Source: Phycisphaerae bacterium (GTDB taxonomy: Bacteria; Planctomycetota; Phycisphaerae; UBA1845; CAIVHJ01). Taken from it: a stretch of 64,000 nucleotides of DNA. Of the stretch, positions 6,955 to 34,200 are shown one piece after another. Positions within the stretch are counted from its first letter, which is position 1. Each line of letters opens with the position of its first letter. The stretch spans positions 1 to 64,000 of the forward strand of contig JAJVHX010000015.1 in NCBI GenBank assembly GCA_022072405.1. The letters are read 5' to 3'. Under the pieces are notes generated by a model. The model was not told where the DNA came from. It ran no database searches and saw nothing but the letters and a program-made list of their open reading frames with translations. The position numbers and the translations under genes were made by a program.

Positions 6955-7000
6955 GGACGTCGCGCAGGCTGAAGCCCGCGGCTCTTTGAATTTTATACTT
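6955..7000 (+). repeat. REP-like palindrome, family 1
   Basis: CGCGCAGGCTGAAGCCCGCGGCTCTTTGA at 6961-6989 gives a near-palindromic GCAGGCT/AGCCCGC hairpin and is followed by ATTTTATACTTCTACC. It lies between dapF and the decayed membrane gene. Related copies are at 509, 16368, 19904, 28997, 29069 and 47038-47131. Confidence 0.75.
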
Positions 7001-25830: not shown

Positions 25831-26400
25831 TTATCGGCGCGCGGCGGCCTTTTTCTTGCGGATCGAGGTCGAACGGGGGGCTTTCCGGACCACTTTCCGG
25901 GCAGTTGTTTTTTGGCGCGAACTCCGGGAGGCGGGTTTTTTGCTCCTCATCGCCAGTATCCATTCGTAACCGGCAATAAATTCCTTGACCGGAGCCTTGG
26001 CGACGGCCTCGCCGATCAGCTCCAGCGGCAGATCCTCCAGTTTTTTGAAGCGAATACAGGCTTTACCAGCATCCAGTTTTTTACCGCTCCGGCGATATTC
26101 CGCATCGAACCAATCCTTCAGACCCGGTTCCATATAGAGGTGGCATAGATAAACCGCCATGTGGTTCTTCTGCGAAGCTAATCCGGCGAAGGGCAGCGGC
26201 TGTTGGGGGTCGCAATGATACCCCGGCGGATAGAGTGTATGGGGCACATAATATCCAATCATGCCATACTGCATGCCCTCCTCGAAACCCCTGGGCAGAT
26301 GTTTGAGGATTACCCGTCGAACTTTTTCCAGCGCCAGGCGGCGATCATCCGGCAGGGCAGCCAGATATTCTGTAACACTCCGTGCGGTTTTGTTGGTCAT
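25831..26400 (-). CDS. DUF1801-family protein, last gene of the TPP-riboswitch operon
   Basis: Start: the ATG at 26400, with GGAG 9 nt upstream; an ATG at 26436 overlapping the previous stop is an alternative. The residues GFEEGMQYGMIGYYVPHTLYPPGY match the YdhG/DUF1801 signature, followed by a Lys/Arg-rich tail of about 35 residues that ends in KKKAAARR. DUF1801 proteins have a compact fold related to frataxin-like domains and unclear function. The basic tail could bind nucleic acid. It is the last of a co-directional run starting at 32892. Confidence 0.75.
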   Translation of the reverse strand: MTNKTARSVTEYLAALPDDRRLALEKVRRVILKHLPRGFEEGMQYGMIGYYVPHTLYPPGYHCDPQQPLPFAGLASQKNHMAVYLCHLYMEPGLKDWFDAEYRRSGKKLDAGKACIRFKKLEDLPLELIGEAVAKAPVKEFIAGYEWILAMRSKKPASRSSRQKTTARKVVRKAPRSTSIRKKKAAARR

Positions 26401-26435: not shown

Positions 26436-26915
26436 CTAAAACACGCGCGGTTTGCCCAGCAGAGTCCGATTGACGGTCAGCTGGCCAAAATGCCAGTAGG
26501 GATGCGCGGCCAACAGCGCCACCAGCGTCCCGATGGTTGGAAACATTTTGGAGCCGGTCGGATTGGGTTGCCCAAAACTTTCCTCGGTCAGATTCTGAAT
26601 ACAGGTGATGGCGCGTTCATTGGTCGTAGTAAAATGTTTCCAGGCCTGCTCCATCGTCATACCATCATCTTTCAGGCATTTACTATTGCCGCCGAATTGA
26701 TCATGCAGTTCCTGGGGCAGCTTCATCCCCTGACCATCCAGCGTCCCGGCCATTTGATCTGCGCTCACCGCCAGATGCGTCAGAATCCAGCAGACATGGT
26801 TACCCGTGCTGCCCGGTTGAAAATGAGCGTCTTCCTCCGAAAAATCCTTGATAAAATTTTCGAATAATTCCTGGGCGGTTTTAAGCTGATAAACCAGCGC
26901 ATCTTTGGAATTCAT
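26436..26915 (-). CDS. DinB/YfiT-like metal-dependent protein (copy 4)
   Basis: The 159-residue four-helix-bundle protein has the DinB-type metal ligands: H in WILTHLA (helix 2) and a HPYWHFGQL motif near the end (HxxxH, then Q). AAAGGAG lies 7 nt before the ATG. DinB-superfamily members bind Ni or Zn, and several (BstA, YfiT, MDMPI) use low-molecular-weight thiols in S-transfer or isomerisation. The substrate here is unknown. It overlaps or abuts the DUF1801 gene and follows the TPR gene by 178 nt, the largest gap in the run. Confidence 0.85.
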   Translation of the reverse strand: MNSKDALVYQLKTAQELFENFIKDFSEEDAHFQPGSTGNHVCWILTHLAVSADQMAGTLDGQGMKLPQELHDQFGGNSKCLKDDGMTMEQAWKHFTTTNERAITCIQNLTEESFGQPNPTGSKMFPTIGTLVALLAAHPYWHFGQLTVNRTLLGKPRVF

Positions 26916-27093: not shown

Positions 27094-27495
27094 TTAATCA
27101 GGGCTGGAGCGCCTCCGCAGCAACTCCAGATTCTGGGCAATTCGATTTTTATCCGACTCGGTGATGAAGGACTGGTTCAGCAGATGTTCATAAAGTTCTA
27201 TGCTCTGTGATACCTGCCCTTGTTGGGCGAGATAGGCTGCTTTTTGCTCCGCCACGTAATAATGAAAATAATGGCCTTCCATTTCGATGCCATGATCATA
27301 CCATTGCAGGGCGGTGGTGGCATCGCCCATTTTATCACAAACCACCGCAATGTTATAACTCATCAACGATTTATCGATGTCGGAGATATCGCTTTGCAAC
27401 AGAGCCTGCAAAATATTGATAGCGGCGGAGAAATCACCCACCTCAACAAACCTGGCCGCCTGGTTGGCCTGTTCGACATATTGCTGGTAGTCCAT
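27094..27495 (-). CDS. Small TPR protein downstream of thiC
   Basis: This 133-residue protein starts MDYQQYVEQANQAARFVEVGDFSAAINILQALLQ and has about three TPR-like helix pairs (YNIAVVCDKMGDATTALQWYDHGIEMEG). There is no signal peptide and no enzymatic motif, so it is probably an adaptor. It starts 65 nt after the thiC stop on the same strand, so probably in the same transcript. Its partner is unknown. Confidence 0.65.
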   Translation of the reverse strand: MDYQQYVEQANQAARFVEVGDFSAAINILQALLQSDISDIDKSLMSYNIAVVCDKMGDATTALQWYDHGIEMEGHYFHYYVAEQKAAYLAQQGQVSQSIELYEHLLNQSFITESDKNRIAQNLELLRRRSSPD

Positions 27496-27560: not shown

Positions 27561-29237
27561 TTAACTGCGTCCGACATGCACCTGCACATACTCCTGCTGA
27601 GTGTGTTGAGCGACAGTTTCGTCGGCGATGTTGTCCGAGTGGCAGGCGTGCTTTTTCCCGCGCTGGGCCAGAAACGCGGACTGTTCCGGCGAGAGTCCCG
27701 GTGATTTCATGGCCGTTTTGGTCGGCTGAAAGGCGTCCATCTTGCCGCTGGCCCAGTCGGTGATCTCCTTGCTGATGCGCATGCTGCACCAGTCGTGACC
27801 GCACATGGCGCAGAAATCAGTGTCGACTTCCAGGTCCTCATCATGCAAGGCTCGCGCCGTTTCACCATCGAAGGCGATCTCGAATTGTTTAGGCCAATTC
27901 AGTGCTGCCCGGGCCCGACTCATATCGTTATCCCATTCGACGGCGTGCTGGATTCCGCGGGCGATATCTCCGGCGTGAGCGGCGATCTTGTAGGCGATGC
28001 AACCCTGTTTCACGTCGTCAGCTTTGGGCAAGCCGACATGCTCTTTCGGGGTGACGTAGCAAAGCATGGCGGCGCCGGCGCGGGCCGCTTCGGTGGCTCC
28101 GATGCAACTGGTGATGTGGTCGTAACCGGGAAACACATCGGTGACCAGCGGGCCAAGCACGTAAAACGGCGCGTCGTCACAGAGGCGCTGCTGCACCTGC
28201 ATGTTCCAGGCGATCTCGTTGAGCGGCACGTGGCCTGGCCCTTCCACCATGACCTGCACGCCCATCTCGCGGGCCCGATGCACCAGCTCGCCCAGCACTT
28301 CCAGTTCGGCGATCTGGGCAGCGTCTCCGGCATCGGCCAGGCAGCCCGGCCGTACGCCGTCGCCCAGCGAATAGGTCACGTCATATTCCCGCATGATGGC
28401 ACTGATCTCGTCGAACAGGTCATACATCGGGTTTTCCTTGTTATGGTGGATCATCCACTTGGCCAGCAGCGATCCGCCGCGCGACACCAGCCCGGTGAGG
28501 CGTTTTTTGATCAGATGCAGGTTTTCCCTTTTCAGGCCGGCGTGGATGGTGAAGTAATCGACACCTTGCTGAGCCTGTAACTCGACTTCACGCAGGATGT
28601 CGTCATAGCTGAGGTCTTCGATGCTCTTATCGATGATCATGCTGTAGATCGGTACCGTGCCGATGGGGATGGTACTGTGGTCGATGATGGCTTGGCGGCA
28701 TTCGCGCAGATGGCCGCCGGTGGAAAGGTCCATCAGCGTATCGGCGCCATATTTCTGGGCCCAGCGCAGTTTGTCGACTTCTTCTGCCAGTGAACTGCTT
28801 ACCGGGCTGGCGCCGATATTGGCGTTGATCTTGGTGGTAATCATCCGGCCAATCCCCATCGGATCAAGTCGTTTGGGGGCGTTCTCGCCTTTCATGAATT
28901 TGATATCTGAAATTTCAGACCAGCGCTGGGCCACCGTCTGATTGACCCAGAAGCGCGCATGCAACCGCGCTCCAGGGTGACCGGCAGTTGTTGGATTGAA
29001 AGAGCCACCGGCTTTAGCCGGCGCGAATTGGTTAGCAGTTGGAGCTTCCGATAGGGGCGATGATCCAAGCGGGTTACAACCCGCGGCTCCTTGCCGGTGG
29101 CGAATATTCGCCGGGATCACCAGTCGCCCACGGGCCACCTCGTCGCGAATAAATTCCGGTGTCACGCATTCGCGCGTCGCCACTCGCCGCATCTCCGCCG
29201 TGATCTTACCCTGCTTCGCCGACTCATATTGCGTCAT
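27561..29237 (-). CDS. thiC: Phosphomethylpyrimidine synthase ThiC with in-frame insert
   Basis: ThiC is the radical-SAM enzyme that makes the pyrimidine (HMP-P) half of thiamine from AIR. The ATG at 29237 is chosen because AAGGA lies 7 nt before it. The C-terminal cluster motif is CAMCGHDWCSM (CX2CX4C), and DLSTGGH, GTVPIY and NANIG are present. After IPANIRH (residue 47 or so) an extra segment of about 74 residues appears before LDPMGIGRMITTKINANIG. Part of its DNA is a pair of inverted REP-like repeats (see 28997-29093). The insert lies near the N-terminus, before the conserved barrel, so activity may be kept. It is the eighth gene of the riboswitch-led run, 3.65 kb from the riboswitch. 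Confidence 0.95.
   Translation of the reverse strand: MTQYESAKQGKITAEMRRVATRECVTPEFIRDEVARGRLVIPANIRHRQGAAGCNPLGSSPLSEAPTANQFAPAKAGGSFNPTTAGHPGARLHARFWVNQTVAQRWSEISDIKFMKGENAPKRLDPMGIGRMITTKINANIGASPVSSSLAEEVDKLRWAQKYGADTLMDLSTGGHLRECRQAIIDHSTIPIGTVPIYSMIIDKSIEDLSYDDILREVELQAQQGVDYFTIHAGLKRENLHLIKKRLTGLVSRGGSLLAKWMIHHNKENPMYDLFDEISAIMREYDVTYSLGDGVRPGCLADAGDAAQIAELEVLGELVHRAREMGVQVMVEGPGHVPLNEIAWNMQVQQRLCDDAPFYVLGPLVTDVFPGYDHITSCIGATEAARAGAAMLCYVTPKEHVGLPKADDVKQGCIAYKIAAHAGDIARGIQHAVEWDNDMSRARAALNWPKQFEIAFDGETARALHDEDLEVDTDFCAMCGHDWCSMRISKEITDWASGKMDAFQPTKTAMKSPGLSPEQSAFLAQRGKKHACHSDNIADETVAQHTQQEYVQVHVGRS
28997..29093. repeat. Inverted pair of REP-like palindromes inside thiC (REPIN-like)
   Basis: On the plus strand one copy (28997-29025) reads GAGCCACCGGCTTTAGCCGGCGCG, that is, family 1 in reverse orientation. 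The other (29069-29093) reads GCGGGTTACAACCCGCGGCTCCTTG in forward orientation. About 43 bp separate them. Both are read through in frame by thiC. Elsewhere in the window this repeat is only intergenic. Confidence 0.8.
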
Positions 29238-29321
29238 GTTCATTTCCTTGCTTCATCAAATGTGTGGGTCAGCCCATCCTGCCTGGAATTGGTCAATTAC
29301 CCGTTCTCATCGAAAAAAGAT

Positions 29322-29783
29322 CTATCCCTTTTTAGCCATCGCCTGCATCCGTTTGTCCATCTGCTCAGCAGACACATCTTCGATATGGGTGGCCAGAGTC
29401 CACTTGTGGCCGAAGGGATCGAGAAGTGTTCCCGAGCGATCACCGTAAAATTGAACTTGAACTGGCTTCAGTTCCCGTGCCCCGGCGGCGAGTGCCTTCT
29501 TAAATTGCGCGTCAACATCCGGCACATAGATCAGCAAACCAACCGACGTACCGCCAAAATGGGTCGGGCTGTAAATCTCCATGTTGGGAAATTCGTCGGC
29601 CAGCATGATCACGGAATCCCCGATGCAGATTTCCGCATGCTGAACCTGGCCTTCGGCTCCGGGCATCCGAAATTTCTCGCGGGCTCCGAAGGCACTTTGA
29701 TAGAATTCGATCGCCTGGGCCGCTCCCTTGATAATCAAATACGGGGTCACCGAATGATATTCTTTGGGCTGGTACTCCACCAT
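29322..29783 (-). CDS. VOC-superfamily protein, PhnB/YdcA-like
   Basis: The ATG at 29783 has AGGAGGA 8 nt upstream and gives 153 residues. The sequence VTPYLIIKGAAQAIEFYQSAFGA and LLDPFGHKWTLATHIED is the PhnB-type vicinal-oxygen-chelate fold (two beta-alpha-beta-beta-beta modules), with HAEICIGDSVIMLADE in the middle. VOC proteins bind a divalent metal and act in glyoxalase-type isomerisation, ring cleavage or resistance. The usual metal Glu/His set is only partly visible. thiC starts 84 nt later. Confidence 0.85.
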   Translation of the reverse strand: MVEYQPKEYHSVTPYLIIKGAAQAIEFYQSAFGAREKFRMPGAEGQVQHAEICIGDSVIMLADEFPNMEIYSPTHFGGTSVGLLIYVPDVDAQFKKALAAGARELKPVQVQFYGDRSGTLLDPFGHKWTLATHIEDVSAEQMDKRMQAMAKKG

Positions 29784-29881: not shown

Positions 29882-30538
29882 TCACGCATCGAGTTCATAG
29901 GCGGTCTGAACCCATTTTAAGACCATAGGGTCAATCTCACCCGCCGAGGTGATGGCAAAGCGATGAGTAATGCGATCGCCCTTGGCTGCTCCGCCGGTGT
30001 CGATCAGCCGATCCGGTATTTTCCGGTTCGCCGGCAGTCCCTTGAGGCACAATCCGAAATCGATCCGCGTGCGGGTCGTTGGTTTGATCTGCGCGATGAC
30101 ATGCTGGCGGAAAATCGGCACCATGGTCTGACAGGGGCAGATCTGAATATCTTTTCCCAGGCTTCGACACAAATCGATGAGGGCATCATGCACCGGCCGC
30201 AAAACGGTCCTGGCCCCGCCATACAGAGTATCAACATACGTTTCGGCCATCCGCAGATATTCATCCGGATCGGTGTAATCGGACGATTTCCCGGTCGCTT
30301 CATCAACCAGCCAGCGCGAATAATTGGTTCCGAGTTCATACTCCTTCTTGAGCCAGTCCCGCCGCGCTGCGTCCGACTTGGGCCCCTGAGTCTTAATCAG
30401 CTTTACCCATTCCTCCAGGGAACGACCGGTACGCTCTTTCAAGGAGGATATTCGTTTTTGCGCCATCGCAATGCTGGGATGGGGACTATAAATTGATTTT
30501 TTCGCTTTAGATTTACCCGGCATTTTCCAACTCACCAT
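29882..30538 (-). CDS. DUF4287/DUF5655 protein
   Basis: This 218-residue protein has a DUF4287-like N-terminal half (KRISSLKERTGRSLEEWVKLIKTQG...WLKKEYELGTNYSRWLV), where a short helical SPxxWxxL pattern is typical. The C-terminal half is DUF5655-like (DTLYGGARTVLRPVHDALIDLCRSLGKDIQICPCQTMVP). Such proteins commonly accompany DUF1801, DinB and VOC genes in bacteria; their function is not established. It starts 3 nt after the next upstream gene in the run, so translation is probably coupled. Whether the start is 30538 or the ATG at 30523 is not clear. Confidence 0.75.
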   Translation of the reverse strand: MVSWKMPGKSKAKKSIYSPHPSIAMAQKRISSLKERTGRSLEEWVKLIKTQGPKSDAARRDWLKKEYELGTNYSRWLVDEATGKSSDYTDPDEYLRMAETYVDTLYGGARTVLRPVHDALIDLCRSLGKDIQICPCQTMVPIFRQHVIAQIKPTTRTRIDFGLCLKGLPANRKIPDRLIDTGGAAKGDRITHRFAITSAGEIDPMVLKWVQTAYELDA

Positions 30539-30541
30539 AAT

Positions 30542-30904
30542 TTATTGGTTAGGCGTGGCCGATTTCCACAAGCCGATGGTATTGCCGGCGGGGTCTTCAA
30601 ACCAGGCGAACGCGCCTACCTCACCGACCTGCTGCGGGGGTATGAGGGTCCGGCCACCGGATTTATTGATCTGGTCCAGATAATTTTGCAGGTCATCCAC
30701 CTGAATATATATGTTGACGTACTTATGAGGTTCATGTCCCAGCGCATTAAAATGGCCATTAATGCCGGTCTCCGCACCGGTCGTGATCATGGCGGAAGTG
30801 GGGCCATAAGCTTCACTTCGCCAATTAAAAACAGCGCTGTAAAACTCCTTCGTTTTATGCAGATCCTGGCAGCCGATTTCAAAATGAACTACCGGGTTTC
30901 CCAT
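30542..30904 (-). CDS. VOC-superfamily (glyoxalase-like) protein
   Basis: The ATG at 30904 is chosen because AAAGGAG lies 8 nt before it; the longer frame to 30937 only overlaps the upstream stop. The 120-residue chain has VHFEIGCQDLHKTKEFYSAVFNW at its start and AWFEDPAGNTIGLWK at its end, the two halves of a VOC fold. A central YIQVDDLQNYLDQINKSGG helix lies between. His near the start and Glu near the end are plausible metal ligands. It is 3 nt from the DUF4287 gene. Confidence 0.85.
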   Translation of the reverse strand: MGNPVVHFEIGCQDLHKTKEFYSAVFNWRSEAYGPTSAMITTGAETGINGHFNALGHEPHKYVNIYIQVDDLQNYLDQINKSGGRTLIPPQQVGEVGAFAWFEDPAGNTIGLWKSATPNQ

Positions 30905-30936: not shown

Positions 30937-31341
30937 TTAGTCATGGTCTTCCTGGCAGGTCGGGGCATCGTCGGTCGGCTGGCCGAAGGTCAGCAGGTAA
31001 CCGTTGTTGTCCTGCACCGCGATTTCCTTCATCTGGTAAAAATAAACTTCCGGCCCTTCAATAATAGCGACCTGATCTTTCAAATGATTGTAAATCTCCA
31101 TGACATCATCAGTGCGAAAATACAGGCGGCCAGTCATGATCGGTTCGGCGGGCCGGTTTTTCTCCGATTGGGTGGTAAACATGATGCTGATTTGATCACG
31201 CGCCAAGTCACACCAGCAGGGGGCCTCTGCCGGCCAGGAACTGTGCAGACGAAATCCAAGAACCTCGGTATAAAATCGAATCGTACCAGCCATGTCGTTG
31301 GTCTTGAGCATGGGCGACATTTCCACCAGTTGAGCATTCAT
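30937..31341 (-). CDS. VOC-superfamily (bleomycin-resistance/glyoxalase-like) protein
   Basis: This 134-residue protein has MLKTNDMAGTIRFYTEVLGFRL and YFRTDDVMEIYNHLKDQ, typical of the fosfomycin/bleomycin-resistance branch of the VOC fold. It ends in a Cys/His/Asp-rich tail (CQEDHD). It follows the third DinB gene by 4 nt, so translation is probably coupled. The substrate is unknown. Confidence 0.85.
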   Translation of the reverse strand: MNAQLVEMSPMLKTNDMAGTIRFYTEVLGFRLHSSWPAEAPCWCDLARDQISIMFTTQSEKNRPAEPIMTGRLYFRTDDVMEIYNHLKDQVAIIEGPEVYFYQMKEIAVQDNNGYLLTFGQPTDDAPTCQEDHD

Positions 31342-31345
31342 ACGG

Positions 31346-31876
31346 CTAACTCCTCGCGCCTGCTATTCTGGCCAGTTCCACCATCCGGGCCAGATGATAA
31401 TCGTCGTGGTCCGCGGTAAAAACACACATATCCACCAGTCGCATCGGAATCTGCAAGCGCGGATGTTGTGCCGTCCTGGCCAGCAACGACTCGTCCAGCG
31501 CTTCCAGCCTCCGAACCATGGTCAAGCGTTGGCGTGTAAAGGCTGACAATAGAACCGAAACGGAAACAGCATGATGATCCGCCTGATGCGTAGCCCGGTT
31601 GGTCACATCCGCAGCGCGCAGGGTGGTCAGCCCAGCCTGATAATCGTCGATGCGGCCATCATGTAAACGATCCAGATCAAGCAGGTGGCCGATGTTTTCC
31701 TGGATCGACCAGGTTCCCTCCCGTTCCCGCCGTTGCAATATTTCCACGGGCCACTGCTTCAATAAATATTCAATCCGCGCCGGCGTGCCGCGCAAACGCT
31801 CCAGCACCTCGGGATAAATCCCGACCGGAAACTGAAAATTCCACCGTCGTTCAAACCACGGTACTCGCGCCGACAT
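31346..31876 (-). CDS. DinB-like metal-dependent protein (copy 3)
   Basis: This 176-residue protein has the DinB bundle with WSIQENIGHLLDLDRLHD (helix 2, H ligand) and TADHDDYHLARM (HxxxH) at the end. The pattern before helix 2, REREGTWSIQENIGHL, is the class with a W-x4-[IV]-x-H motif. It lies 13 nt after the second DinB gene and 4 nt before the VOC gene. The N-terminus MSARVPWFERRW is distinct from the other copies, so this is not a recent duplicate. Confidence 0.85.
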   Translation of the reverse strand: MSARVPWFERRWNFQFPVGIYPEVLERLRGTPARIEYLLKQWPVEILQRREREGTWSIQENIGHLLDLDRLHDGRIDDYQAGLTTLRAADVTNRATHQADHHAVSVSVLLSAFTRQRLTMVRRLEALDESLLARTAQHPRLQIPMRLVDMCVFTADHDDYHLARMVELARIAGARS

Positions 31877-31889
31877 GGGCTGATCCTTA

Positions 31890-32390
31890 TCAATGAAGTG
31901 GTTGGCGGACCCGCATCATATAATCCAGTTCGACCAGGCCGACGCCGAGCCGCCGCAGCATATTGACAATCTGGGCGCGGTGGTGGATGGAGTGAATGAT
32001 CATCTGCATCACCATATCTTTCGGCGTTGTCTGGAAGAGAGAGCCCCGGGAATCCCGATACCGTATAGTAGCCTGCATATTCCCGAATCCGGTGGTTTCG
32101 ATCCGTTGTCGTCGTCGTATGGCCAGCGCTTCGAACTGTTGTTGTAGCGCGTTGATCGGGGTCGGCAGATCTTCGCTCGGCCAGGGGGTTTCTGTTTCGC
32201 CTTGCCAACGTTTCAGCCAGACCGCTTCTCCGTTATACAGGTGGAGGATGGTCTGGCGCAGTGTGCCCATGCCGATTTCGAAGGGTTGATCCAGCTGTGC
32301 GGCGCTCAGGTGCGTTGCTGCGGCGAGCACCTGGAGGTTGGCCCAGTCGCTGTAATCCAACAGTCCGTGCAGAACGTGCAGCTCACTCAT
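31890..32390 (-). CDS. DinB-like metal-dependent protein (copy 2)
   Basis: This 166-residue protein has a DinB-type helix 2 LRQTILHLYNGE and a C-terminal IIHSIHHRAQIVNMLRR, carrying the HxxxH pair before a Q. An Arg cluster IRRRQRIETTG lies in the middle. Its ATG overlaps the previous stop by 8 nt, which favours translational coupling to the riboswitch-controlled first gene. The substrate is unknown. Confidence 0.85.
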   Translation of the reverse strand: MSELHVLHGLLDYSDWANLQVLAAATHLSAAQLDQPFEIGMGTLRQTILHLYNGEAVWLKRWQGETETPWPSEDLPTPINALQQQFEALAIRRRQRIETTGFGNMQATIRYRDSRGSLFQTTPKDMVMQMIIHSIHHRAQIVNMLRRLGVGLVELDYMMRVRQPLH

Positions 32391-32892
32391 GATCTTTTCT
32401 CCTGTTGAGTCGTGCTTTCATCTGGCGGATTTGCCCGGCGTGGTATACATCGTGGCTGGCGACACCGCTGATCAGCATGAACCAGGTGACCTTTGAACCT
32501 GGAGGATGTTGTGGTAATTTTCGTTCATCAAAATTCCGCACCGCTTCGCGCAGTTGCTGGTGCTGCGTTTCCAACAATTGAAGATAGCTTCGCCAATCAG
32601 CGGCGGGCAGGGGATCAGGTTGTTTGAACCAGTTACTGCCTTTGAGCGGAAATGAACCGCGATTCGCACCCGTCACTTTCCGCCGGATGGCATATTTCCA
32701 ATAAGCACAATGGAGGCAGAGTTCGGCGATGGTATGCGGCGAGGCGGGTGTGATCCGGCTGGCGTTCACCGCATTCACGCCCCCCAGTGCATGGCGCAGA
32801 TTGGGACCATGCCACGAAGCCTGGTCGTAAGATCGATCGAGTAGCTCCACCAGCCAGGTAATTGTATCGTGGGTTGAAGATCGGGCGGACAT
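32383..32892 (-). CDS. DinB-like metal-dependent protein (copy 1), first gene after TPP riboswitch
   Basis: This 169-residue protein has HTIAELCLHCAYWKYAI (helix 2) and VASHDVYHAGQIRQMK (HxxxHxGQ), the DinB_2/YfiT ligand set. Its ATG is the last element of the TPP riboswitch: the conserved GCGGAGGGA core contains the Shine-Dalgarno GGAGGG 5 nt before the start codon, and P1 includes the first base of the ATG. Translation of this gene should therefore fall when TPP is bound. The role is unknown. A link to thiamine salvage, damage control or precursor detoxification is inference from the regulator alone. Confidence 0.9.
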   Translation of the reverse strand: MSARSSTHDTITWLVELLDRSYDQASWHGPNLRHALGGVNAVNASRITPASPHTIAELCLHCAYWKYAIRRKVTGANRGSFPLKGSNWFKQPDPLPAADWRSYLQLLETQHQQLREAVRNFDERKLPQHPPGSKVTWFMLISGVASHDVYHAGQIRQMKARLNRRKDHE

Positions 32893-32987
32893 CGCTTCCC
32901 TCCGCAGTCTGTTCCCCGGAGGAACAGGAGCTGATCAGGTTCCAAGGGTGTGTTCTCAGTCCCAAATCCGTGGGACACCCCTAGCGA
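32892..32987 (-). promoter_or_regulatory. TPP (thiamine pyrophosphate) riboswitch
   Basis: Read on the minus strand, the element contains in order: P1 strand TCGCT (32987-32983), AGGGGTGT for P2, a TCCCA/TGGGA P3 hairpin, CTGAGA, ACACACCCTT, then GAACCTGATC, and finally GCGGAGGGA with P1 strand AGCGA (32896-32892). All core positions of the thi-box are present. P5 is extended by an extra CTGTTCC/GGAACAG hairpin, and the usual UAAU in that loop is missing. There is no terminator between aptamer and ATG, so control is probably translational. Confidence 0.93.
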
Positions 32988-33003
32988 ATGTTTGGATTCT
33001 TAT

Positions 33004-33032
33004 GTTGTAGCGTCAGGTTCCGATAAGGTCAA
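33004..33032 (-). promoter_or_regulatory. Sigma70-like promoter of the riboswitch operon
   Basis: Read on the minus strand, TTGACC (33032-33027) and TACAAC (33009-33004) are separated by exactly 17 bp. Transcription would then start near 32997, just before the riboswitch P1 at 32987. Confidence 0.55.
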
Positions 33033-33249
33033 TTGTGACAGGGCAGATATTGGCGGAGTGGTCAGCGGACTGAAATTGTCGGATTGAATAATGATCCGCC
33101 TGCAGCCGTAACAAATCATACCACCTGATATAACAGCCGATGAATACAGCAGTTTAACAGATCGATTGTGGCGACAGGCAGGCGGTCCACTACAGATCGA
33201 ATATCGCTGCTGCTGCCTCCGCCAGTATGGCCTTCGGCGAGGTGTTATT

Positions 33250-34200
33250 ATGGTCAATGCGGAATTGATGGAAGCGATCAAGCGCAGTGGAGCAGTCCCC
33301 TCCATGCCCCAGGTGGTCATGCGCTTTCTGGAAATCATTCAGGATCCGGAGTTTCAATACGATGATCTGGTCGCCGTGCTTTCAACCGACCCGGGAACCG
33401 CGTCCGAAGTGTTGCGCATGTCCAATTCCGCGTTGTTCGGTGTGGCCCGCAAGATCACCTCGTTGAAACAAGCCATGACCCTATTGGGTCCGCGGCGGGT
33501 GCGTTCGCTGGTGCTGGGCCGATATATGGTTGAAGCGATCGGGGCCCGCGGCCTCGGTTCGCTCGATGAAAATTATTTCTGGCGGCGTTCGCTCGCCTGT
33601 GCCGTGGTGACTACCCGTTTTGCCGATCTGCAAGCCCCCAACTACCGCGAAGAGGCCTTCATCGCCGCGTTGCTGGCGGATATCGGTATCGTCATTCTGG
33701 CTGAGGAGTTGCCCAGCGAGTATCAGCCGATTATTCAGCTTTTTGCCCCGATGGGCGAAGCGAATCTCGCTCTGCTCGAAAAGGAGGCGCTGGGAATTAC
33801 CCACGGTGAAGTGTCGGCGGCGGTATTGGAACATTGGCAACTGCCCGAAATCATCTGCGAAGCGGTGGCCCGCCATCAACTGGATATCACTGCCGCCACC
33901 GAACCAACCCATCTGGCCCGCATCATCAACGCCGCCGATCAGATCTCCAAGTTGCTGTGTGAAAGTCCTGACAGCCAGACCCTGGTGCAGGATTGCCAGC
34001 GAGCCTTGAGCATGATCAATCTCGACCTGGCTACATTATGCGAGATTCTGGATCAGGTGGAAATCGATGTGACCGAATTTGCCAGCCTGCTGCATATCCC
34101 GATCGTGCCCAGCAGTACCTATCAGCTGATTCGCAAAGCCATCAACGACGCCCTGGCGCCATCAGCGGTGTACATCGCACCGACGGTCGCCCCTAACTAG
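33250..34200 (+). CDS. HDOD-domain protein
   Basis: The ATG at 33250 has GAGGTG 7 nt upstream. The 316-residue product has the HDOD hallmark: LPxxxL-like PSMPQVVMRFLEI, IIQDPEFQYDDLVAVLSTDP, ASEVLRMSNSALFG and the helix MTLLGPRRVRSLVL, then a C-terminal HD-related segment with HGEVSAAVLEHWQLPEIICEAVARHQ. HDOD proteins are regulatory relatives of HD phosphohydrolases with signalling roles. No sensor or output domain is fused. It is divergent from the riboswitch operon. Confidence 0.9.
   Translation: MVNAELMEAIKRSGAVPSMPQVVMRFLEIIQDPEFQYDDLVAVLSTDPGTASEVLRMSNSALFGVARKITSLKQAMTLLGPRRVRSLVLGRYMVEAIGARGLGSLDENYFWRRSLACAVVTTRFADLQAPNYREEAFIAALLADIGIVILAEELPSEYQPIIQLFAPMGEANLALLEKEALGITHGEVSAAVLEHWQLPEIICEAVARHQLDITAATEPTHLARIINAADQISKLLCESPDSQTLVQDCQRALSMINLDLATLCEILDQVEIDVTEFASLLHIPIVPSSTYQLIRKAINDALAPSAVYIAPTVAPN

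What the first reader, a model, noticed from the sequence alone, without database searches (positions are those of the whole stretch)
32892..32987. TPP riboswitch drives a DinB/VOC operon instead of sitting directly on thiC
The minus strand shows the full thi-box core (GGGGTGT, CTGAGA, ACACACCC, GAACCTGATC, GCGGAGGGA) with P1, P2 and P3 all pairing. It is followed at once by a DinB-type gene, and thiC is eighth in the run, about 3.65 kb away. TPP riboswitches normally control thiamine synthesis or transport genes, so DinB and VOC enzymes as first targets would be a new regulon content as far as I know. Either these genes act in thiamine metabolism (salvage, repair, detoxification), or a block of genes was inserted between a riboswitch and its thiC.
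Basis: partly seen in the sequence, partly recalled or inferred. Interest (0 to 1): 0.9.

Follow-up and report, generated by a model that had tools for sequence, protein, structure and literature searches.

The report
Thiamine riboswitch controlling DinB before thiC
In this bacterium the RNA switch that senses vitamin B1 carries the start of a gene for an unassigned metal-binding protein (DinB type) placed ahead of the vitamin B1 gene thiC, and because this pairing recurs in many relatives it points to a possible unrecognised helper in making vitamin B1.

Summary
A full-length TPP aptamer lies at 32880-32992(-): 53.0 bits, E 1.9e-9, just under Rfam's cut-off of 54.3, the only one found in the genome. 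The DinB1 start codon (32892) overlaps aptamer helix P1 and its ribosome-binding site lies in the aptamer, so DinB1, not thiC, carries the switch; thiC is eighth, 3.65 kb on. Nearest named relatives are Phycisphaerae/Planctomycetota. DinB lies between TPP and thiC in 10 of 51 TPP+thiC loci of the order, 3 of 16 of another family and two further families. Of 82 listed DinB2-like domains in 53 genomes with a located TPP site, 34 lie within 6 kb of it (about 0.2 expected), all 34 on its strand. Most thiC-linked DinBs fall in three clades. VOC/DUF4287 genes are unshared, apparently a local insertion. 39 of 51 loci have no DinB between; two hold DinB stubs. Best reading: a recurrent DinB-thiC association under TPP-controlled translation, thiC reached by read-through or coupling. 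Function of DinB, TPP binding and transcription are untested.

The parts
32880..32992 (-). TPP riboswitch aptamer (RF00059)
   Evidence: cmscan 53.0 bits, E 1.9e-9, full model; only hit in own genome
32890..32903 (-). GGAGGG (ribosome-binding site), P1 3' strand AGCGA and ATG of DinB1, inside the aptamer match
   Evidence: sequence read against the structure line; relatives' cores
32383..32892 (-). DinB1 (clade B)
   Evidence: PF12867 E 1.7e-8; tree
31890..32390 (-). DinB2 (clade C), overlaps DinB1 by 8 nt; conserved H50, H133, H137
   Evidence: PF05163 E 2.8e-17; alignments A1, A2; AF2 model pLDDT 92.3
31346..31876 (-). DinB3 (outside clades A-C)
   Evidence: PF12867 E 2.6e-11; tree
30937..31341 (-). 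VOC1, glyoxalase-like
   Evidence: PF00903 E 8.1e-13
30542..30901 (-). VOC2, glyoxalase-like (ORF can start at 30937)
   Evidence: PF00903 E 5.5e-11
29882..30523 (-). DUF4287 + DUF5655 protein (ORF can start at 30538)
   Evidence: PF14117 E 2.4e-11, PF18899 E 1.2e-13
29322..29783 (-). VOC3
   Evidence: PF00903 E 2.7e-11
27561..29243 (-). thiC, phosphomethylpyrimidine synthase
   Evidence: PF01964 E 1.6e-180; NF009895 618 bits vs cut-off 410
27094..27495 (-). small TPR-like protein behind thiC
   Evidence: TPR matches, all below Pfam cut-offs
26436..26915 (-). DinB4 (outside clades A-C)
   Evidence: PF12867 E 7.9e-13; tree
25831..26400 (-). DUF1801 protein
   Evidence: PF08818 E 6.7e-17

Best explanation
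A TPP riboswitch that acts on translation controls a DinB-thiC operon. Shown by sequence: the aptamer, with the DinB1 ribosome-binding site at P4 and the start codon at P1. Inferred: when TPP binds, P1 and P4 lock and the ribosome cannot start DinB1; overlapping or closely spaced genes then pass the OFF state down the mRNA by coupling or loss of untranslated mRNA, reaching thiC as the eighth gene. Shown by comparison: DinB genes of certain clades stand at thiC, on its strand, in several Phycisphaerae-like families, in some as the first gene after the switch and joined to thiC by overlapping stop and start codons. Inferred: this DinB (three-histidine, thiol-transferase/hydrolase-like fold) is an accessory or damage-control enzyme of the ThiC (pyrimidine) branch, wanted when ThiC is made. 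The VOC and DUF4287 genes of this window are a later local insertion that the relay arrangement tolerates.
For: Aptamer 53.0 bits. A start codon within 15 nt of the core is the published criterion for direct translational control (PMC2258182, passages). ATG 0-9 nt after the core: f8 11 of 13, f2 7 of 14 (12 with a recognised core), f1 2 of 2 (window corrected by eye, the script had mis-set its core), against f7 2 of 19 and f6 0 of 4. DinB between TPP and thiC: 10 of 51 order loci, 3 of 16 in f13, and G159 (f22) and G271 (f10), fetched because one search showed DinB there. f13 DinB-thiC junctions: ATGA in G172 and 5 nt in G118, offset -4 in G202, as an ATGA overlap gives. 34 of 82 DinB2-like domains within 6 kb of TPP, 34 of 34 same strand, 25 of 53 genomes (places). 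22 of 22 DinB domains found in 80 named thiC loci, in 12 of the loci, are upstream and on thiC's strand. Own genome: 7 DinB_2 places; the four window DinBs all pass that threshold, so 4 of 7 by inference (the capped list shows two of the four). Tree clades A, B, C. DinB stubs behind the switch in G016 and G021, in ORFs of 45 and 56 aa. Histidines invariant.
Against: 39 of 51 order loci have no DinB, whole or stub, between TPP and thiC. In G106, G108, G111 and G100 DinB lies upstream of the switch, as in several f24 and f10 genomes, where it is not under that switch; G104 is alike if its very weak TPP hit (26.3 bits, E 0.53) is real. 48 of 82 DinB2-like domains are not near TPP, and 7 of 9 further DinB loci fetched had no thiC in the stretch. 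Other gene types also sit between switch and thiC, which fits hitchhiking. Gaps of 98 and 78 nt before VOC3 and thiC leave room for other control. No expression data. I know of no thiamine reaction for DinB; BshC is absent in 35 of 35 genomes, so the known bacillithiol chemistry is unlikely.
Confidence: 0.55

Rival explanations
1. Hitchhiking: the stretch between the switch and thiC is a tolerant landing site, because any translated and coupled ORF preserves control of thiC; DinB genes are common cargo without a role in thiamine metabolism.
For: Diverse cargo in the same place: nucleotidyltransferase/HEPN-like pairs in G002, G013, G029, methyltransferases in G105 and G113, cupins in G097 and G064, a hydrolase-like and a transposase-like ORF in G111 (only the G105 methyltransferase and the G064 cupin were typed by Pfam, the rest read by eye). 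Short leader ORFs ending on the next start codon (7 of 16 ATG-started leaders of the order, the G105 neighbour) would provide the tolerance. Own VOC/DUF4287 block is unshared.
Against: DinB recurs far above its genome density (34 of 82 vs about 0.2 expected, though related genomes are counted as independent and no control family was run), on the same strand in 34 of 34, mostly in specific clades, and also upstream of the switch next to thiC, where the relay gives no advantage.
Confidence: 0.28
2. Split control: the riboswitch now governs only the DinB/VOC genes, while thiC has acquired its own promoter behind VOC3.
For: 98- and 78-nt gaps before VOC3 and thiC; a translational OFF switch should act weakly over 3.65 kb (inference).
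Against: Promoter-like sites are not above chance, and the only minus-strand one between 32.9 and 29.2 kb lies inside DinB3 (sigma-70 consensus only). In G172, G202 and G118 DinB is directly joined to thiC.
Confidence: 0.12
3. The aptamer is a decayed remnant without function.
For: Score under the gathering cut-off; folding energy like shuffles.
Against: Full-length match with core motifs and start-codon geometry kept; 58 of 66 TPP-bearing genomes of the order also score under the cut-off, and their sites mostly stand before thiC.
Confidence: 0.05

Closest known systems
TPP riboswitch (THI element, RF00059)
   Same: Aptamer of full model length, core motifs, translational placement; thiC in the same run.
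   Different: First gene is DinB. In a survey of 249 genomes TPP regulons were described by thiamine synthesis and transport categories, and its main text does not contain 'Planctomyc' (PMC3766115, passages).
M. tuberculosis ppe2 B12 riboswitch with uORF relay (AUGA overlap)
   Same: Switch controls a first ORF whose stop overlaps the next start, described as a relay (PMC11260477, passages); the same layout is read here with short leaders in G002, G013, G017, G113, G105, G080, G023.
   Different: Other ligand and phylum; here sequence evidence only, and in the window the first ORF is DinB itself.
DinB/YfiT (S-transferase-like) superfamily
   Same: Pfam DinB/DinB_2; three conserved histidines, as in BstA (PMC5815605, passages); DinB2 model resembles YizA 2qe9 and YfiT 1rxq.
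   Different: Low identity (15-18% to the best five fold matches); no bshC in 35 of 35 genomes; located at thiC.
ThiD2-ThiE thiamine pathway
   Same: ThiD2 in 27 of 29 genomes and TMP-TENI (ThiE) in 29 of 29 at E<=1e-3, 28 over cut-off.
   Different: DinB is no replacement for the kinase, since ThiD2 is present. ThiD2's substrate restriction is from PMC12345177 (passages).

Membership tests
TPP riboswitch RF00059 | covariance match over the whole aptamer | tested here: met
   53.0 bits, E 1.9e-9, positions 1-105
TPP riboswitch RF00059 | score at or above curated gathering cut-off (54.3) | tested here: not met
   53.0 bits; a curator's threshold, also missed by 58 of 66 TPP-bearing genomes of the order
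TPP riboswitch RF00059 | binds TPP | not testable with these tools
   needs in-line probing
TPP riboswitch RF00059 | direct translational control: start codon within 15 nt of aptamer core | tested here: met
   DinB1 ATG overlaps P1; criterion from PMC2258182
thiamine biosynthesis regulon | regulated run contains a thiamine gene | tested here: met
   thiC eighth, same strand
thiamine biosynthesis regulon | all genes of the run transcribed together | not testable with these tools
   only spacing and no above-chance terminators
DinB/STL superfamily | Pfam DinB or DinB_2 above cut-off | tested here: met
   DinB1-4 all above the PF12867 cut-off
DinB/STL superfamily | three metal-site histidines and four-helix bundle | tested here: met
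   tested for DinB2 only: H50, H133, H137 invariant; fold match 2qe9 E 3e-5, 1rxq E 7.6e-5
bacillithiol/mycothiol S-transferases | NCBIfam transferase models above cut-off | tested here: not met
   best 25.1 bits vs cut-off 160 (DinB3)
bacillithiol/mycothiol S-transferases | host makes bacillithiol (BshC) | tested here: not met
   0 of 35 genomes, own genome among them; mycothiol genes not searched

The most novel reading that the evidence does not exclude
DinB2-type proteins are a dedicated, undescribed component of the ThiC branch of thiamine synthesis in Phycisphaerae, repressed by TPP together with ThiC; TPP-DinB-thiC is the older arrangement, and in several lineages DinB has decayed to a leader peptide that only relays riboswitch control to thiC.
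Probability: 0.35. Interest if true: 0.8.

Novelty: new variant of a known kind. Interest (0 to 1): 0.6.

Why it matters
TPP riboswitch regulons are described as sets of synthesis and transport genes. A switch whose own ribosome-binding site belongs to DinB, repeated across several families, makes a large superfamily of mostly unassigned metalloproteins testable in one defined pathway, and offers a simple reason (translational relay) why genes can accumulate between a riboswitch and its classical target.

Tried and rejected
Missing-enzyme idea: canonical ThiD (PF08543) reached strong scores only in G002 and G017 of 29 genomes, which suggested that DinB might replace it; rejected because ThiD2 is present in 27 of 29. 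TenA replacement: PF03070 absent in 32 of 32 genomes, with and without DinB at thiC, so it does not discriminate. Bacillithiol co-substrate: BshC 0 of 35. Whole block conserved: the VOC, DUF4287, TPR and DUF1801 proteins of the window have no match at E <= 1e-3 in 60 stretches from relatives except one VOC2-like ORF (E 6e-4) in G009, upstream of its weak TPP hit. DinB at thiC in other groups: the 12 of 80 named loci with DinB all have planctomycete-type record titles; none of the loci titled otherwise (Deltaproteobacteria, Myxococcales, Acidobacteriota and so on) had one, but only the 80 best thiC loci were looked at.

Literature: searches (open-licence PMC only). 'TPP riboswitch' with 'DinB' gave 2 papers, and in the passages shown DinB is unrelated in both; 'TPP riboswitch' with 'Planctomycetota' gave 0. 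Passages were also seen of PMC2258182, PMC12345177, PMC5815605, PMC6336425, PMC3766115 and PMC11260477; the other papers were seen as listings only.

Limits: TPP searches over more than 40 genomes use stricter filters and can miss weak sites (one search gave two weak hits, 29.3 bits E 0.1 and 26.3 bits E 0.53, that one search had not). Searches list about 150 rows each, so one search covers only listed places; it counts domains, so a two-domain DinB counts twice; TPP places were entered by hand and 42 genomes without a listed TPP place were left out. The chance figure assumes uniform placement in 4.5 Mb and treats related genomes as independent. No control family with a similar genome count was tested at thiC. 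Labels f1, f2 and so on are the tool's anonymous families. In one search the script mis-set the core in the window, G047 and G048; the window was corrected by eye, the other two have no ATG there. Of 20 stretches fetched, 19 were analysed (L320 was not). An earlier count gave about 25 domains in 13 loci; the recount is 22 in 12.

Full report
What is there. A cmscan of 32500-33300 finds one RNA family, the TPP aptamer, at 32880-32992 on the minus strand with 53.0 bits and E 1.9e-9 over the whole model. It misses the gathering score of 54.3 bits, which is why the gathering search of the window listed nothing. It is the only TPP match in the 3.57 Mb genome. In the same order 66 of 114 genomes have a TPP match at E <= 1e-3 but only 8 are over the cut-off, so a slightly low score is normal there. 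The lone-sequence folding energy does not differ from shuffles (z -0.31). ORFs and Pfam give DinB1, DinB2, DinB3, VOC1, VOC2, DUF4287/5655, VOC3, ThiC, a TPR-like protein, DinB4, DUF1801. thiC is eighth; from the DinB1 ATG at 32892 to its start at 29243 is 3.65 kb.

How the switch meets its gene. Read against the structure line, the 3' end of the aptamer is CUG-CG-GAGG-GA-AGCGA, followed by UG. The last A of the P1 strand is the A of the DinB1 AUG; the GGAGGG that would serve as ribosome-binding site spans the P4 strand GAGG with one base on either side. A start codon within 15 nt of the core is the published criterion for direct control of translation initiation (PMC2258182, passages only). 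That TPP binding closes this site is inference. DinB1 and DinB2 overlap by 8 nt, the next four junctions are 13 nt or less, and 98 and 78 nt precede VOC3 and thiC. Terminator- and promoter-like sites are at chance level. So the first six genes look coupled; for thiC read-through is plausible but unproven.

Relatives. The nearest thiC loci with names are mostly from Phycisphaerae and Planctomycetota MAGs (some record titles name other groups). I took 60 stretches around TPP and thiC sites of the order and scanned them with the window proteins and a DinB profile. Of 51 loci (window included) with both a TPP site and thiC, 10 have DinB between them: G000, G002, G003, G013, G017, G027, G064, G102, G103, G113, from families f1, f2, f7 and f8 (recount); in these ten the first gene that I recognised behind the switch on its strand is DinB. 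Two more, G016 and G021, have DinB stubs there (ORFs of 45 and 56 aa). The other 39 have none. DinB lies upstream of the switch in G106, G108, G111 and G100, upstream of a doubtful TPP hit (E 0.53) in G104, right before thiC without a detected TPP in G008 and G025, and behind thiC in G069 and G070. VOC, DUF4287, TPR and DUF1801 relatives were not seen there, apart from one weak VOC-like ORF in G009.

Beyond the order. Of 40 TPP loci from other families, 16 are of family f13, and three of these (G118, G172, G202) are TPP-DinB-thiC with DinB starting at the switch; in G312 (f24) and G338 (f10) DinB-like ORFs lie upstream of the switch. The DinB stop overlaps the thiC start by ATGA in G172, the offset is -4 in G202, and 5 nt separate them in G118. 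G202 matches the named record JAICIO010000147 in coordinates, contig length and TPP score, 72.9 bits. A profile of seven DinB2-like domains was run over 397 genomes of the class. Of the 150 domain places listed, 82 are in the 53 genomes whose TPP place was listed; 34 of 82 lie within 6 kb of TPP, where about 0.2 would be expected, all 34 on the same strand, in 25 genomes of families f1, f2, f8, f10, f13, f22, f24; 48 are elsewhere. Fetching some of these showed TPP-DinB-thiC in G159 (f22) and G271 (f10), DinB-TPP-thiC close together in G369, G286, G352, and DinB further upstream in G405, G391, G254, G395, G268; of nine fetched DinB loci with no TPP site entered on that contig, two (G007, G018) have DinB before thiC and seven show no thiC in the stretch. 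In 80 named thiC loci with up to 10 kb on each side, 22 DinB domains were found in 12 loci, all upstream and on thiC's strand. The 41 genomes hold 0-14 DinB_2 places each. The own genome has seven; since all four window DinBs pass the same threshold, four of the seven should be at this locus, although the capped list shows only two of the four.

Are they the same DinBs? A tree of 114 DinB domains, 55 from thiC/TPP loci and 59 chosen as background, puts most thiC-linked ones in three clades: A (G003, G102, G104, G108, G111, G113, G026 and two named loci), B (window DinB1, G013, G064, G104, G098, G100) and C (window DinB2, other single domains and tandem double DinBs), with the f13 proteins next to C. 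Some background proteins fall inside or at the base of these clades (G097, G099, G100, G058, G107, G110); window DinB3 and DinB4, the genes behind thiC in G069/G070 and one from G338 fall outside. So there are a few recurrent partners, not a random sample of DinBs, but the linkage has been broken or never formed in several genomes (for example G107 against its genus mate G108).

A translational relay. In families f1, f2 and f8 an ATG stands 0-9 nt behind the aptamer core in 2 of 2, 7 of 14 and 11 of 13 loci, against 2 of 19 in f7 and 0 of 4 in f6 (window corrected by eye because the script mis-set its core). That ATG opens DinB itself (window, G103, in frame in G064), another gene, or a short leader. 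Of 16 ATG-started leaders under 100 aa in the order, seven end on the start codon of the next ORF: DinB in G002, G013, G017, G113, a methyltransferase in G105, thiC in G080, and an upstream start in frame with thiC in G023; in G026 the overlap is 14 nt, in G016 the leader is the DinB stub and stops one base before a possible thiC start, and the other seven show no such junction with a recognised gene. A riboswitch-uORF relay over an AUGA overlap has been shown for a B12 switch in M. tuberculosis (PMC11260477, passages). Here it is sequence evidence only. It would explain why whole genes can enter between switch and thiC without uncoupling them.

What DinB might do. The window DinB2 model (pLDDT 92.3) resembles YizA and YfiT (weak sequence matches to the same two) and keeps the three histidines that are the likely metal site of BstA (PMC5815605, passages). 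NCBIfam thiol-transferase models match only weakly and bshC is absent in 35 of 35 genomes, so the co-substrate is unknown. The hosts have ThiC (41 of 41), ThiE-type (29 of 29) and mostly ThiD2 (27 of 29), and no TenA (0 of 32). I therefore favour an accessory or damage-control role for the ThiC branch, as inference. The main rival is hitchhiking in a tolerant spot, supported by the other cargo seen there.

Verdict. The aptamer and gene order are as reported. The new point is that DinB at TPP-thiC is a recurrent association in several families of the class, not a curiosity of one genome, while the VOC block looks local. The searches of open literature that I made found no description of it, which is limited to what that library holds.

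Noticed in passing
window 28960-29110 (-), inside thiC: The ThiC stretch from IPANxxH to INANIG is very variable in length among the relatives printed (28 to 143 residues; 102 in the window); in the window the extra DNA is repeat-like and palindromic (GCCGGCTAAAGCCGGTGGCTC), with weak partial matches at 6960, 16367 and 47063 (best E 0.002).
   Followed up: partly
L163 (G002), L177 (G013), L158 (G029), between TPP and thiC: Nucleotidyltransferase-like and HEPN-like ORF pairs (read by eye) recur between the switch and thiC, in two families.
   Followed up: no
own genome C3:71909-72853 (-): ThiD2 and ThiE domains adjacent, each in a 347-aa open frame; canonical ThiD strong only in G002 and G017 of 29 genomes.
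   Followed up: partly
L279, L281, L282, L283 (f21) and L287, L292, L300 (f19): Here the TPP switch stands before what look like thiF-thiG-thiH type ORFs instead of thiC (read by eye).
   Followed up: no
L144 (G108), L142 (G097), L168 (G098): Other ORFs lie behind the switch: a 124-aa protein at a riboswitch-proximal ATG in G108 (DUF4406, below Pfam cut-off), cupin-like and phosphoesterase-like ORFs by eye, so the site accepts several gene types.
   Followed up: partly
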